Notes under the pieces: model-generated
What the model was told of the DNA's origin: nothing
Database searches by the model: none
The model's input: only the letters and a program-made list of their open reading frames with translations
Origin: Streptococcus mitis
GTDB lineage: Bacteria > Bacillota > Bacilli > Lactobacillales > Streptococcaceae
Direction: 5' to 3'
Assembly (NCBI RefSeq): GCF_001281025.1
Contig: NZ_CP012646.1
Location: forward strand, 1,269,001-1,333,000
DNA: 64,000 nucleotides
In this document: piece by piece, positions 27,058-39,003 of the stretch
How positions within the stretch are numbered: the first letter of the stretch is position 1
How the letters are laid out: the number at the start of each line of letters is the position of its first letter
Made by a program: the position numbers and the translations under genes

Positions 27058-28413
27058 ATGTTAAAGAAAAATGATATTGTAGAAGTTGAAATTGTTGACT
27101 TGACCCATGAAGGTGCAGGAGTGGCCAAGGTGGATGGTTTGGTATTCTTTGTCGAGAATGCTTTACCGAGTGAAAAAATCCTCATGCGTGTCCTCAAGGT
27201 CAATAAAAAGATTGGTTTTGGTAAAGTTGAAGAATACCTTGTTCAATCACCACACCGTAATCAAGATTTAGATTTGGCTTACCTGCGTTCAGGAATCGCG
27301 GATTTAGGTCATCTTGCCTATCCAGAACAGCTCAAATTTAAAACCAAGCAAGTTAAGGACAGTCTCTACAAGATTGCAGGAATTGCTGATGTAGAGGTTT
27401 CTGAAACTTTAGGTATGGAAAATCCAGTCAAGTACCGTAACAAGGCACAGGTGCCTGTTCGTCGTGTTAATGGTGTCTTAGAAATTGGATTTTTCCGTAA
27501 GAATTCCCATGACCTCATGCCTCTAGAAGATTTCTTTATCCAAGATCCTGTGATTGATGAGGTAGTAGTAGCTCTACGTGACTTGCTCCGTCGTTATGAC
27601 CTGAAACCTTATGATGAAAAGGAACAAGCTGGCTTGATTCGAAACCTTGTGGTACGTCGTGGGCATTACTCAGGACAAATCATGGTTATTTTGGTAACAA
27701 CCCGTCCAAAGATTTTCCGTGTGGAACAATTGATTGAACAATTAATCAAGCAGTTCCCAGAGATTGTGTCTGTTATGCAAAATATTAATGACCAGAACAC
27801 TAATGCTATTTTTGGTAAGGAATGGCGCACCCTTTATGGACAAGACTATATTACCGACCAGATGCTGGGAAATGACTACCAAATCTCTGGTCCAGCCTTT
27901 TACCAAGTCAATACTGAAATGGCTGAAAAACTCTATCAAACAGCCATTGACTTTGCTGAATTAAAAAAAGATGACGTGGTTATTGATGCCTATTCTGGTA
28001 TCGGGACGATTGGCCTCTCTGTTGCGAAACACGTCAAGGAAGTCTATGGTGTTGAAGTAATTCCAGAAGCGGTTGAAAATAGTAAGAAGAATGCTCAACT
28101 GAACAATATTTTAAATGCCAACTATGTCTGTGACACAGCTGAAATCGCCATGAAGAATTGGCTCAAGGAAGGTATTCAACCAACCGTTATTCTAGTGGAC
28201 CCACCAAGAAAAGGCCTCACTGAGAGTTTTATCAAGGCAAGTAGTCAAACAGGAGCAGACCGCATCGCCTATATCTCATGTAATGTCGCAACCATGGCGC
28301 GTGATATCAAACTCTACCAAGAGTTAGGATATGAATTGAAGAAAGTCCAGCCGGTTGACCTATTTCCTCAGACGCATCATGTTGAGGCAGTATCACTGCT
28401 TGTACGAGCTTAG
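27058..28413 (+). CDS. rlmCD: 23S rRNA uracil-C5 methyltransferase RlmCD
   Basis: A 451-residue enzyme that, in pneumococcus, methylates both U747 and U1939 of 23S rRNA with SAM. An N-terminal TRAM domain (about residues 1-60) is followed by the central region and the SAM-binding domain. The catalytic Cys408 lies in YISCNVATMARD and the DPPRKGL motif is present. The cysteines that hold an Fe-S cluster in E. coli RlmD are not seen in the N-terminal half, which agrees with my memory of the pneumococcal enzyme. Its last 33 coding bases recur at 36441, marking it as an integration site. Methylation by this enzyme influences macrolide and ketolide response. Confidence 0.95.
   Translation: MLKKNDIVEVEIVDLTHEGAGVAKVDGLVFFVENALPSEKILMRVLKVNKKIGFGKVEEYLVQSPHRNQDLDLAYLRSGIADLGHLAYPEQLKFKTKQVKDSLYKIAGIADVEVSETLGMENPVKYRNKAQVPVRRVNGVLEIGFFRKNSHDLMPLEDFFIQDPVIDEVVVALRDLLRRYDLKPYDEKEQAGLIRNLVVRRGHYSGQIMVILVTTRPKIFRVEQLIEQLIKQFPEIVSVMQNINDQNTNAIFGKEWRTLYGQDYITDQMLGNDYQISGPAFYQVNTEMAEKLYQTAIDFAELKKDDVVIDAYSGIGTIGLSVAKHVKEVYGVEVIPEAVENSKKNAQLNNILNANYVCDTAEIAMKNWLKEGIQPTVILVDPPRKGLTESFIKASSQTGADRIAYISCNVATMARDIKLYQELGYELKKVQPVDLFPQTHHVEAVSLLVRA
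28378..28410 (+). repeat. Attachment-site copy 1: 3' end of rlmCD
   Basis: The last 33 sense bases of rlmCD (encoding HVEAVSLLVRA, stop excluded) are repeated exactly at 36441-36473 and in 24-bp partial form at 38922-38944. The accessory region starts right after this point. Confidence 0.9.
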
Positions 28414-28428
28414 AAAAAAATGTTGACG

Positions 28429-28455
28429 AAAAATCCTTGACACCAAGGATTTTTT
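28429..28455 (+). terminator. Terminator after rlmCD
   Basis: ATCCTTG and CAAGGAT with an ACAC loop, flanked by an A run and TTTTT. Confidence 0.85.
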
Positions 28456-28482
28456 GGTATCCTCAAAAAGGTAATTTTATAA

Positions 28483-28498
28483 TTGACAATTTGTCAGT
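28483..28498 (+). promoter_or_regulatory. Operator of the first TetR regulator
   Basis: TTGACAATTTGTCAGT contains the inverted repeat TGACAAtTTGTCA. The same 16 bases occur inverted at 29230-29245 before the ABC genes. Here it overlaps the -35 TTGACA (28483-28488), 17 bp from the -10 TATGAT (28506-28511), implying self-repression. Confidence 0.85.
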
Positions 28499-28531
28499 AA
28501 AGTGGTATGATTTATAATCAGGAGGAATAAA

Positions 28532-37189: not shown

Positions 37190-37798
37190 TTGGACGAACA
37201 AATTTTTTTGATGGGTGGGAATCCCCCAATAAAGAAACATAGCATTGTTGATAAAATTGTATTATCAAGCAAGATTGAAAGAATTGTTATTTTTACAGTT
37301 TTTCGAGATAATTGGCAACCCTATATGAAAAAGTACACGGAAGTTTTCCAAAGTCAATTTCCTCATCTAAACACTGATTACTTACTTTTGGACACTGAGC
37401 AGATTAATTTTGATAGCTATCTAGATGCTGATCTAATTATTATAGGTGGTGGAAATACGGAAAAATATTTAGCTACTTATGTCAATCAGGAGTTCAAAAA
37501 TTATATCGATCATATGCTTAATAAAGGGGCAAAAGTTATAGGATTTTCTGCAGGAGCCCTATTATTAGGAGAAAAAGTCTATGTCTCACCTAATGATAAT
37601 TCAGATCATCAGATAAAGATAAAAAATGGATTAGGATTCTTTAGTCAGTTTTTAATTAGTGTCCATTATGATTCATGGAATGATAAAGCAAATAAGGATA
37701 GAGCTGAAGAACTCGTTAATGTTCCCATAATTCCACTAAATGATCATTCATGTCTTGTATTAGATAAACTTGGAAACATTATTGAGAAAATTGACTAG
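37190..37798 (+). CDS. Peptidase S51 (dipeptidase E-like) family protein
   Basis: A 202-residue protein with a class I glutamine-amidotransferase-like fold of the S51 type. IIIGGGNTEK precedes the nucleophile Ser120 in IGFSAGALLLG, and the His region is VHYDSW. Family members cleave Asp-X dipeptides or related isopeptides; the actual substrate is uncertain. The only suitable start is a TTG at 37190 with a weak ribosome site; an ATG at 37211 would remove part of the first strand. Stand-alone cargo gene. Confidence 0.78.
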   Translation: MDEQIFLMGGNPPIKKHSIVDKIVLSSKIERIVIFTVFRDNWQPYMKKYTEVFQSQFPHLNTDYLLLDTEQINFDSYLDADLIIIGGGNTEKYLATYVNQEFKNYIDHMLNKGAKVIGFSAGALLLGEKVYVSPNDNSDHQIKIKNGLGFFSQFLISVHYDSWNDKANKDRAEELVNVPIIPLNDHSCLVLDKLGNIIEKID

Positions 37799-37854
37799 TT
37801 TTAATCATGCGAATCTGAATCTACGAAACTAAAGTATTGACGAAATGAATAATG

Positions 37855-37882
37855 AAAAGCCTTGATTGTAAGGCTTTTTTGT
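37855..37882 (+). terminator. Terminator after the S51 peptidase gene
   Basis: AAAAGCCTT and AAGGCTTTT across GATTGT, followed by TT; nearly identical to the terminator at 32144. Confidence 0.85.
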
Positions 37883-37975
37883 GTTTTTATGATAGAATAT
37901 AGGTAGTTATAATCGAGAGCAACTAAGAAGCAGTAAAAATATTATTCATAAAATAATCAAGATAAGGAAGATAAA

Positions 37976-38713
37976 ATGACAGAAATTGACAAAAAGAATT
38001 TAAAAAATTATCTTTATTGTACTTTTGGAATTACTTATATAGCTTGGGTGCTTCTTGCCATATTTACTCAATCTCATATTTTGGGATTAGAAACATTTAT
38101 AGGGAGAATGTTACATATAGTAGGTGCACTTGGTCCAGCTATTGCAAGTGGCTTTTATTTGAAAAGGAATAATATAAAATTTAAACATTTTGTATTTAAT
38201 AAAAGAAAAAATAGTAGTATTTATTTCATTATTCATTTGTTAGCAATTTTGATACTATTCTCTGTATCTTCCTTAGAATTAAACGGAGTATCAATTTATC
38301 TGATGCCACTATTCTTTATACAATTAATTTTTTTTGGTGGTGGACATGAAGAATTAGGATGGAGAGGTATATTACAACCGTTACTTGATAAAAAATATAC
38401 TTATTGGCAATCTAATTTGATTGTAGGATCAATTTGGGGGATTTGGCATCTGCCTTTATGGTTTATAGTTGGAGAGAGTCATCAAGGATTTCCTTTTATT
38501 TTATTTTTTATATATACATTATTTTTAAGTTTTGTTTTAGGGCTTCTTTACCGTCAAACGAAATCTGTGGGGTACTGTCTATTATTTCATGCGTTCGCAA
38601 ATTTGTTAAATCTCTATTTTGTGTTAAAAATTAATGTTATTTTTATCATCATTTTTATTGGTTATTTGATTTATACAATATTGGCTAGTAATAGAATTAG
38701 TAAGGAAAAGTAA
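37976..38713 (+). CDS. CPBP-family intramembrane metalloprotease
   Basis: A 245-residue membrane protein with about seven hydrophobic segments. The CPBP (Abi) motifs are present: EELGWR (Glu125, Glu126, Arg130), WGIWHLPLW (His158) and FHAFANLLN (His205). Members are related to Rce1 proteases and are often found beside bacteriocin loci, where some provide self-immunity. No bacteriocin gene is visible here. AAGGAAG lies before the ATG. Very A+T-rich, cargo of the second accessory block. Confidence 0.88.
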   Translation: MTEIDKKNLKNYLYCTFGITYIAWVLLAIFTQSHILGLETFIGRMLHIVGALGPAIASGFYLKRNNIKFKHFVFNKRKNSSIYFIIHLLAILILFSVSSLELNGVSIYLMPLFFIQLIFFGGGHEELGWRGILQPLLDKKYTYWQSNLIVGSIWGIWHLPLWFIVGESHQGFPFILFFIYTLFLSFVLGLLYRQTKSVGYCLLFHAFANLLNLYFVLKINVIFIIIFIGYLIYTILASNRISKEK

Positions 38714-39003
38714 TTTTAACTTTAGATTAGTATATCCATTATTGAAAGTAACGATTTGCTAATTAGATGATCTATGTTAGAGAATTATCTATTATAATTT
38801 AAAGTGGAGTGATGAATATCGTTTCTTTTGGAACTGGCGAAAATCTTTCCGTTCCACAGTATCATTTTAAAATGATTTTTACTGCCTTTCGTTTATTAGT
38901 ATAAAAGAAGAATATTACCATATGTTGAGGCGGTATCACTGCTTATTCAAACTGATTAAACAAGGATGTAGCTAGTGAAAGTCCTACAGTAAGGAGTTTA
39001 AAC
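38714..39003. other. Intergenic stretch with the third rlmCD tail
   Basis: This 290-bp gap holds a palindrome ATCATTTT-AAAATGAT (about 38863-38878) followed by TTTT (possible terminator), an A+T-rich segment (38886-38921) alignable with the one before attachment copy 2, and the partial attachment copy 38922-38944. Nothing else is recognised. Confidence 0.6.
38922..38944 (+). repeat. Attachment-site copy 3 (partial rlmCD tail)
   Basis: ATGTTGAGGC and GTATCACTGCTT flank a single A-to-G change relative to the rlmCD end. The frame continues LLIQTD and stops, an alternative RlmCD C-terminus. It bounds the second accessory block (36474-38921). Confidence 0.82.

What the first reader, a model, noticed from the sequence alone, without database searches (positions are those of the whole stretch)
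28378..38944. Three copies of the rlmCD 3' end bracket stacked accessory blocks
The last 33 sense bases of rlmCD (28378-28410) recur exactly at 36441-36473, and a 24-bp version with one mismatch lies at 38922-38944. In each, the frame reaches a stop within a few codons with a different C-terminus (RA, RAEASAK, LLIQTD). This is the signature of site-specific insertion at a gene end, where each element brings replacement last codons. 3' ends of rumA/rlmD-type genes are known integration targets in streptococci, and PPI-1 lies at this place in pneumococci as I remember. Two successive blocks (8.0 kb and 2.4 kb) are thus probably former mobilizable elements now lacking a recombinase.
Basis: partly seen in the sequence, partly recalled or inferred. 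Interest (0 to 1): 0.8.

Follow-up and report, generated by a model that had tools for sequence, protein, structure and literature searches.

The report
Phage-ended gene cassettes after rlmCD
The end of an rRNA-methylation gene in this streptococcus is a docking site where small gene cassettes have piled up in a row; their ends look like those of known streptococcal phages that dock at the same place, and the macrolide-efflux element Mega has such ends too, so the question of how these recombinase-less cassettes move can be tested.

Summary
The repeat is real: 33 bp exact at 28378 and 36441, a one-mismatch copy at 38921, none expected by chance, nowhere else in the genome. Weaker copies at 36566, 39944 and 40887 make six, not three.

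The pattern is genus-wide. In 69 of 97 non-redundant Streptococcus loci the rlmCD 3' end recurs downstream, up to nine times; 137 of 217 blocks belong to 21 families found between such repeats in more than one neighbourhood.

Both strong window junctions carry a right-end sequence learned only from 14 elements that encode paired large serine recombinases (scores 32.2 and 30.0; 67 sites on one strand, 2 on the other, in 1.59 Mb). Those elements are prophages; relatives include Phi-m46.1, whose published 18-bp attachment core is this repeat. The resistance element Mega shares Phi-m46.1's right end exactly.

Best reading: recombinase-less, att-flanked cassettes accreted at the Phi-m46.1 attachment site and reshuffled by homologous recombination; block 1 is a chimera. 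Hotspot and tandem accretion are known; the cassette array and Mega's phage-type ends are what I did not find described. Movement itself is untested.

The parts
27058..28413 (+). rlmCD (rum/rumA), 23S rRNA uracil methyltransferase; its 3' end is the attachment site
   Evidence: Pfam PF05958 and TRAM; same gene in 156 of 157 Streptococcus genomes
28374..28410 (+). attachment core 1 inside rlmCD; the left end of block 1 supplies the last codons ...HVEAVSLLVRA*
   Evidence: same place as the 18-bp attB of Phi-m46.1 given in PMC4288039 (passages)
28430..28455 (+). inverted repeat followed by T run just after the rlmCD stop, terminator-like; part of the left end of block 1
   Evidence: read; no terminator scan was run
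28378..36440 (+). block 1, 8063 bp: TetR, ABC ATPase, permease, DUF1648, GntR, TetR, ABC-2 permease, ABC ATPase, ABC exporter; no recombinase
32143..32177 (+). terminator-like repeat (second copy at 37854-37887) at which block 1 changes relative: left part 95-98% to L089/L098/L111, right part about 90% to L140/L141/L142
   Evidence: (family D14)
36406..36440 (+). right end of block 1 (CTTTCGTTATATAATATAGATGTTTACTAGCACCA)
   Evidence: score 32.2 on a profile from 14 recombinase-bearing elements
36441..36473 (+). attachment core 2, exact copy of core 1
36474..36565 (+). structured part of the roughly 124-nt unit; the same position in Mega holds Mega's first 124 nt
36566..36598 (+). attachment-core-like copy 3, closing the unit
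   Evidence: score 10.9, below the cut-off of 12 used for counts in other loci
36704..37132 (+). GNAT acetyltransferase, over the NCBIfam cut-off for aminoglycoside 6'-N-acetyltransferase group E
37190..37798 (+). peptidase S51 family protein
37841..37887 (+). remnant of another cassette's left end without its core; in several relatives the same sequence begins 46 bp after a core
37976..38713 (+). CPBP/Rce1-like membrane protein
38886..38920 (+). right end of block 2 (CTTTCGTTTATTAGTATAAAAGAAGAATATTACCA)
   Evidence: score 30.0
38921..38953 (+). attachment core 4 (one mismatch over 21 bp to core 1)
39004..39810 (+). alpha/beta hydrolase cassette; block of about 1022 bp like the 11 members of block family 3 in other loci
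39944..39976 (+). core-like copy 5, one extra base
   Evidence: seen by eye, place confirmed
40138..40608 (+). hypothetical protein, no Pfam hit; block of about 940 bp like block family 11
40887..40919 (+). attachment-core-like copy 6
   Evidence: score 25.7

Best explanation
The stretch is an array of non-autonomous, att-flanked gene cassettes accreted one after another at the 3' end of rlmCD, the attachment site of Phi-m46.1-like temperate phages and related elements. A cassette's left end is a stand-in for the last codons of rlmCD, so an insertion keeps the gene open and leaves an attachment core at the gene end again; the displaced gene end stays behind at the cassette's right side. The right end (CTTTCGT..., A/T-rich palindrome, ...CA) is the phage type. 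Integration is most likely done by the pair of large serine recombinases that the autonomous phages encode; the cassettes carry none and this genome has none, so it would act from elsewhere, or did before its genes were lost. Afterwards homologous recombination between cores and between terminator repeats deletes, fuses and swaps blocks. Shown: repeats, shared ends, modular recurrence, recombinase-bearing relatives with the same ends, published phage integration at this core, chimerism. Inferred: that these recombinases moved these cassettes, and the order of events.
For: 69 of 97 loci have 2 or more cores, up to 9. 137 of 217 blocks fall into 21 families, each in at least 2 loci and more than one neighbourhood. 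Ends of matches between the window array and relatives lie within 20 bp of a core in 24% of cases, against 1.7% on average when the cores are rotated, 0 of 2000 rotations as high. Full-length recombinase in 16 of 157 genomes, with a second recombinase gene just upstream in 16 of 16, one partly masked. On the same contig as rlmCD in 9 of the 16, always downstream and same strand, 46-112 kb away. In 13 of 13 elements read without a gap from the recombinase to the next core, that core is preceded by the right-end motif; G068 and G124 agree but 1.6 and 3.5 kb were not read; G150 was not examined. The profile from 14 of these right ends finds 67 plus-strand and 2 minus-strand sites in 97 loci, and 58 of 217 displaced cores directly follow one. 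Holin and endolysin genes stand upstream of the recombinases in 5 of 5 elements scanned. Phi-m46.1 has the pair, ORF56 and ORF57, the same right end, and integrates at an 18-bp core at the 3' end of rum in four species (PMC4288039, passages). All 9 Mega copies here end in the 34 nt that end Phi-m46.1.
Against: No excision or integration was observed. Of 217 displaced cores only 58 follow a phage-type right end; 71 follow the unit junction, 38 a native rlmCD half and 50 something else, so other processes or decay shaped much of the array. The window's own right ends differ from Mega's and Phi-m46.1's, and their closest phage-record matches are weak: 86.7% over 45 nt in a satellite-phage record whose integrase is at the other end, otherwise 77-79%. 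L090 carries a hybrid core best explained by plain homologous recombination. Window block boundaries at 32143-32177 and 37841 are not at cores. ICEs with other serine integrases also sit at this gene, so the recombinase need not be the phage pair for every block.
Confidence: 0.74

Rival explanations
1. Homologous recombination alone: the repeated gene ends are just homology used during transformation, and blocks were exchanged and fused without any site-specific recombinase after an early insertion.
For: Hybrid core in L090 next to intact [82][124] arrays in L087 and L096; chimeric block 1 joined at a terminator repeat; literature that transformation spreads Mega-type and PPI-1 segments (PMC8321556, PMC4263131, PMC4321634, passages).
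Against: It does not explain why block right ends share a sequence with the right ends of recombinase-bearing elements, or the same Mega right end before cores that differ at the variable bases in 9 copies.
Confidence: 0.13
2. Remnants (CIMEs) of ICEs or IMEs with a single serine integrase that cuts inside rumA, not of Phi-m46.1-like phages.
For: Such elements are described for rumA (PMC4701971, section 23 read; PMC5357655, passages); L009, L149 and L153 have other full-length serine recombinases near rlmCD; S. pneumoniae-type left ends (GTAGTGTTGCTACAACGA) occur in several loci.
Against: In that description one att site lies inside the integrase gene and repeats are 2-21 bp; here the right end lies 1.5-8.4 kb past the recombinase pair and the window right ends score as that type.
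Confidence: 0.09
3. Tn916-like insertion by a tyrosine recombinase with six-base coupling sequences, as proposed for Mega.
For: PMC4321634 (passages) describes six-base coupling-like sequences and a TTTCCNCAA target; here too six bases next to the core vary.
Against: No tyrosine recombinase was found in the 97 loci with 16 seed proteins, which is a limited search; the six G000 matches to PF00589 lie outside the window.
Confidence: 0.03
4. Chance or decayed tandem duplication of the gene end.
For: The 82-bp block holds little more than the gene end and a terminator.
Against: Zero matches expected by chance; blocks carry different genes and recur across species.
Confidence: 0.01

Closest known systems
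Phi-m46.1-like temperate phages at the rum locus (Phi-m46.1, Phi-SsUD.1, phi-Ssu..._rum)
   Same: Same gene end and attachment core; right end of the same type; left end supplies rum codons (PMC4288039 passages).
   Different: They carry phage genes and the recombinase pair; the window blocks carry neither.
Mega (mef(E)/mel element)
   Same: Nine copies sit as blocks in these arrays, each after the 124-nt unit, each ending in the exact Phi-m46.1 right end; 124 + 5385 = 5509 and 124 + 5286 = 5410 bp, next to the 5,511 and 5,412 bp given in PMC4321634 (passages). Genes pass NCBIfam cut-offs for Mef(A) and the Msr family (one copy).
   Different: Carries macrolide resistance; also known outside rumA (PMC4321634). 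The window has no Mega.
CIMEs and tandem accretion of ICEs/IMEs
   Same: Elements that kept att sites but lost recombination and transfer genes, stacked in tandem (definition in PMC5704250, passages).
   Different: Here the matching autonomous elements are prophages, and arrays reach nine cores with blocks as short as about 82 bp.
SCC elements at rlmH in staphylococci and ECC in enterococci
   Same: Works alike: 3' end of an rRNA methyltransferase gene, paired large serine recombinases, cassettes in tandem. Best NCBIfam matches of both recombinases are CcrB, CcrC and XisF/CcrA models.
   Different: All scores are far below the curated Ccr cut-offs; target gene is rlmCD, not rlmH.
Pneumococcal pathogenicity island 1
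   Same: Lies at the same gene (SP_1029 at its left flank, PMC4321634 passages).
   Different: Content was not compared.

Membership tests
CIME (cis-mobilizable element) | retained att sites on both sides | tested here: met
   cores and phage-type right ends at 36440 and 38920; the 1022- and 940-bp blocks have unit-type junctions instead
CIME (cis-mobilizable element) | no recombination or transfer genes | tested here: met
   Pfam scan of the block proteins shows none; no PF07508 in the genome; no PF00589 or PF00239 match inside the window
CIME (cis-mobilizable element) | derived from an ICE or IME and mobilised by one | tested here: inconclusive
   ends match prophages rather than a demonstrated ICE; mobilisation not testable here
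Phi-m46.1-like prophage | integration core at the 3' end of rum | tested here: met
Phi-m46.1-like prophage | phage structural or lysis genes and recombinase pair | tested here: not met
   10 of the block proteins against PHROGs: transporters, acetyltransferases, unknowns, no structural or lysis family; no PF07508
SCC (staphylococcal cassette chromosome) | CcrA/CcrB or CcrC recombinase over the curated cut-off | tested here: not met
   best 154.2 and 141.6 bits against a cut-off of 900, on relatives' recombinases
SCC (staphylococcal cassette chromosome) | site in rlmH | tested here: not met
   site is in rlmCD
Integron | IntI tyrosine integrase next to the array | tested here: not met
   no tyrosine recombinase found in 97 loci with 16 seeds; none in the window
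Integron | attC-type folded site in each cassette | tested here: inconclusive
   the 124-nt unit shows helices with 88-96% of cells paired, but is present in only some cassettes and its core copies are direct, not inverted
PPI-1 | pneumococcal iron-uptake and variable-region genes | not tested
   no comparison made

The most novel reading that the evidence does not exclude
Streptococci share a phage-run gene-cassette system at rlmCD that works like an SCC locus or an integron without its own integrase: each cassette brings its own copy of the gene end, so the site is renewed at every insertion; visiting Phi-m46.1-like phages supply the paired serine recombinases; and Mega is one of these cassettes rather than an orphan transposon.
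Probability: 0.4. Interest if true: 0.85.

Novelty: new variant of a known kind. Interest (0 to 1): 0.62.

Why it matters
Integration at this gene end and tandem accretion are in print. What I did not find in the ten searches I ran or in the passages I read is (a) a genus-wide array of small cassettes with a common, phage-type right end, and (b) that Mega, described as lacking mobilisation machinery (PMC8321556, passages), ends in the Phi-m46.1 attachment half-site. PMC4321634 and PMC8321556 contain no mention of m46.1. The library lacks most subscription papers, including the original Phi-m46.1 and Mega reports, so this is not a claim of priority. If right, it names the recombinase to test for a class of elements whose movement was unexplained, and it explains why rlmCD was the locus with the most Tn1207.1/Mega insertion types in 20,043 pneumococcal genomes (PMC8321556, passages).

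Tried and rejected
Tyrosine integrase near the array: regex scan of the loci and phmmer with 16 seeds against 5372 ORFs of the 97 loci found none; rejected as the main mechanism, though the seed set is small. Rfam: no match to the unit, gathering or E up to 5. The unit as a folded recombination site: RNAalifold on 31 of the 50 distinct units finds one main helix; helices 1, 2 and 4 pair in 88-96% of cells, the fourth helix that I drew pairs in only 13%, the covariation score 0.165 exceeds 500 of 500 shuffles (mean 0.087), but the number of pairs with two-sided changes does not (450 of 500 shuffles reach it), and most of the signal is two alternative versions of one helix, some of them mixed by recombination. 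Kept as suggestive only. I first took the recombinase-bearing elements for ICEs (notes); the holin and endolysin genes upstream showed prophages, and I corrected this. Crossover position inside the core could not be fixed: the six bases CAYGTN vary next to the identical Mega right end, which argues against a crossover further right, but the published core is 18 bp. Satellite phage record MK448489 holds a right-end-like stretch but has its integrase at the far end; not pursued.

Dropped rows: of 117 loci (36, 80, the window) 2 had no start core (L094, L151) and 18 were duplicates by the 500 bp after the first core, leaving 97 (25 named, 71 unnamed, the window). Stretches are 0.3 to 19.8 kb, 6 under 5 kb, so core counts are lower bounds. 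Non-streptococcal loci were not scanned.
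Full report
What is there. The 33-bp repeat is exact at 28378 and 36441 and has a close copy at 38921; chance expectation is nil and the genome has no others. Three weaker copies lie at 36566, 39944 and 40887. The window array thus reads: rlmCD, core 1, block of 8063 bp, core 2, a unit of 125 bp, core 3, 2355 bp, core 4, about 1022 bp, core 5, about 940 bp, core 6, then SAP-domain and lipid-kinase genes that recur at this place in relatives.

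The same place in other streptococci. rlmCD was found in 156 of 157 genomes sampled from the genus. From 117 loci, 97 were left after removing two without a start core and 18 duplicates. A matrix of the rlmCD 3' end was scanned: 28 loci have one copy, 69 have two to nine. All copies used are on the strand of rlmCD; the reverse strand of 1.59 Mb has five hits of 7 or more, one of them 12.0. The loci are at most 20 kb long, so counts are lower bounds. The 217 blocks between neighbouring cores form 21 families with 137 members and 80 singletons (90% mutual coverage); every family occurs in at least two loci and more than one neighbourhood. Recurrent sizes are about 82, 124, 1022 and 5385 bp. In 44 loci that reach the conserved downstream genes the distance from core 1 runs from 1.1 to 18.0 kb and rises with the number of cores (Spearman 0.65; not corrected for relatedness, and partly trivial).

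Where the window's blocks come from. Alignments of the window array to the other loci begin or end within 20 bp of a core in 24% of cases, 1.7% on average with rotated cores, 0 of 2000 rotations as high; the alignments are not independent. Seventy-six percent of ends are elsewhere, so decay and recombination matter. Block 1 is a chimera: 28367-32177 matches L089, L098 and L111 at 95-98%, 32144-36468 matches L140, L141 and L142 at about 90%, and the switch lies in a terminator-like repeat present again at 37854. Relative to L089 the window holds an extra 5.7 kb between those two terminators. The GNAT, S51-peptidase and Rce1-like genes of block 2 occur apart in other loci, the last one starting 46 bp after a core there. 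The GNAT protein passes the NCBIfam cut-off for an aminoglycoside 6'-acetyltransferase group (193.3 against 140 bits); its activity is untested.

The recombinase. The window and its genome have no large-serine-recombinase domain. Cassettes L091 and L096 hold fragments of one. A full-length relative, 460 aa, with a second recombinase of about 413 aa overlapping upstream, is in 16 of 157 genomes. In 9 of the 16 it is on the same contig as rlmCD, always downstream and on the same strand at 46-112 kb. In 13 of 13 elements read without a gap the next core follows a right end of the type TTTCGT...TATAG...CA; G068 and G124 agree with part of the interval unread, and G150 was not examined. A profile from 14 of these ends was then run on the 97 loci, none of which supplied it: 67 plus-strand and 2 minus-strand sites; 58 of 217 displaced cores follow one directly; window sites 36440 and 38920 score 32.2 and 30.0; 36566, 39944 and 40887 score below zero. 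The other 159 displaced cores follow the unit junction (71), a native rlmCD half (38) or other sequence (50).

Prophages. Upstream of the recombinases stand holin and endolysin genes in 5 of 5 elements scanned with PHROGs (ORFs of eight elements listed). The recombinase matches 502 phage records, 216 over at least 80% of its length, among them Phi-m46.1 and Phi-SsUD.1 and many named _rum. Phi-m46.1 is annotated with two site-specific recombinases after an amidase; its right end is the right end of Mega, 34 of 34 bases. PMC4288039 (abstract and passages read) reports transduction of Phi-m46.1 into four species with integration at the 3' end of rum and an 18-bp core such as GCATCACGTGGAGTGTGT; the window has GCATCATGTTGAGGCAGT at 28374. 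The same paper found no transfer to S. pneumoniae, S. oralis or S. salivarius although they have the site; that counts against easy traffic of this particular phage in mitis-group hosts.

Mega. The 5385-bp family (nine loci) encodes Mef(A)-type and Msr-type proteins over the NCBIfam cut-offs (one copy tested). All nine copies follow the 124-nt unit and end in the Phi-m46.1 half-site, followed by cores that differ at the variable bases. Inside the unit, Mega's left sequence matches the left end of the prophage of G014 in 86 of 88 bases and of five others in 76-83 of 89. Twenty of 50,697 phage records hold Mega's right end, all streptococcal, 13 at 99% or more. PMC4321634 (passages) gives Mega as 5,511 or 5,412 bp, so the unit is its left end. 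Four of the 14 recombinase-bearing elements have the identical 34 nt, three more differ by 1-2 bases, the other seven by 9-13.

Mechanism. Most likely the paired recombinases join a circular element's att site to the core at the gene end; the element's left end rewrites the last codons. Of the 97 gene ends, the peptides listed nearly all read H-V/I-E-x-V/I-x-L/M/Q-L/I with a short tail; one runs on for 103 residues. Displaced copies vary most at third codon positions (mean entropy 1.14 against 0.87 and 0.62), as do gene-end copies (1.17, 0.68, 0.45), as expected of former gene ends. Homologous recombination then edits the array, as the L090 hybrid core and the chimeric block 1 show. That the recombinases moved these cassettes is inferred.

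Known or new. The rum hotspot, its phages, ICEs and IMEs, tandem accretion and Mega at rumA are in print (PMC4288039, PMC5053989, PMC4701971, PMC5357655, PMC5704250, PMC4321634, PMC8321556; passages, with one section each of PMC4701971 and PMC5357655). ECC at rlmH in enterococci is the nearest published parallel (PMC6222049, passages). I found no description of the cassette array or of Mega's phage-type ends in ten searches; many papers are not held. Names such as SCC and integron features beyond those cited are from general knowledge.

Noticed in passing
window 39797-39962, 40741-40906, about 41620-41787: Two N-terminal fragments (88% alike) and one C-terminal fragment that look like an ADP-ribosylglycohydrolase gene (recognised by eye, not scanned); the N-terminal ones fuse to the right part of the unit at a short shared sequence, as in several other cassette families.
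   Followed up: partly
window 36474-36565 and units in other loci: The roughly 124-nt unit has conserved helices with two alternative versions (GCTGT/ACAGC and GGACT/AGTCC); 146 profile hits, all on the rlmCD strand, in 66 of 97 loci. Function unknown; could be a recombination aid, an RNA or an origin of transfer.
   Followed up: partly
window 36704-37132 and 42847-43338: Two genes with aminoglycoside-modifying-enzyme signatures (AAC(6') group E over cut-off; Aminoglyc_resit just over cut-off), in or beside the array.
   Followed up: partly
L284 9404 and 9520: In the Phi-m46.1 record the right attachment core is followed 116 bp later by a second core, so the S. pyogenes host also has a tandem gene end.
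   Followed up: no
L225 1773-2749; L263: Prophage right ends between recombinase and attachment site hold cargo: a membrane protein and small regulator in L225 that resemble cadmium-resistance genes, and a start that resembles a ribosomal-protection gene near the recombinase in L237 (by eye).
   Followed up: no
L288 (MK448489) 12960-13004: A satellite-phage record of S. pseudopneumoniae contains a right-end-like sequence 86.7% identical to the window's over 45 nt, far from its integrase.
   Followed up: partly
L001, L004, L006, L014, L015, L025 near position 11320: A different left end (GTGTAGTGTTGCTACAACGA...) shared by several named species, including an S. pneumoniae; the same sequence follows the prophage right ends in L219 and L220 before ICE-like genes, so PPI-1 may begin with this type of element.
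   Followed up: no
window 14841-14983, 13920-14016, 544-593: Rfam hits away from the finding: MarS sRNA, preQ1-II riboswitch, SpF36 sRNA.
   Followed up: no
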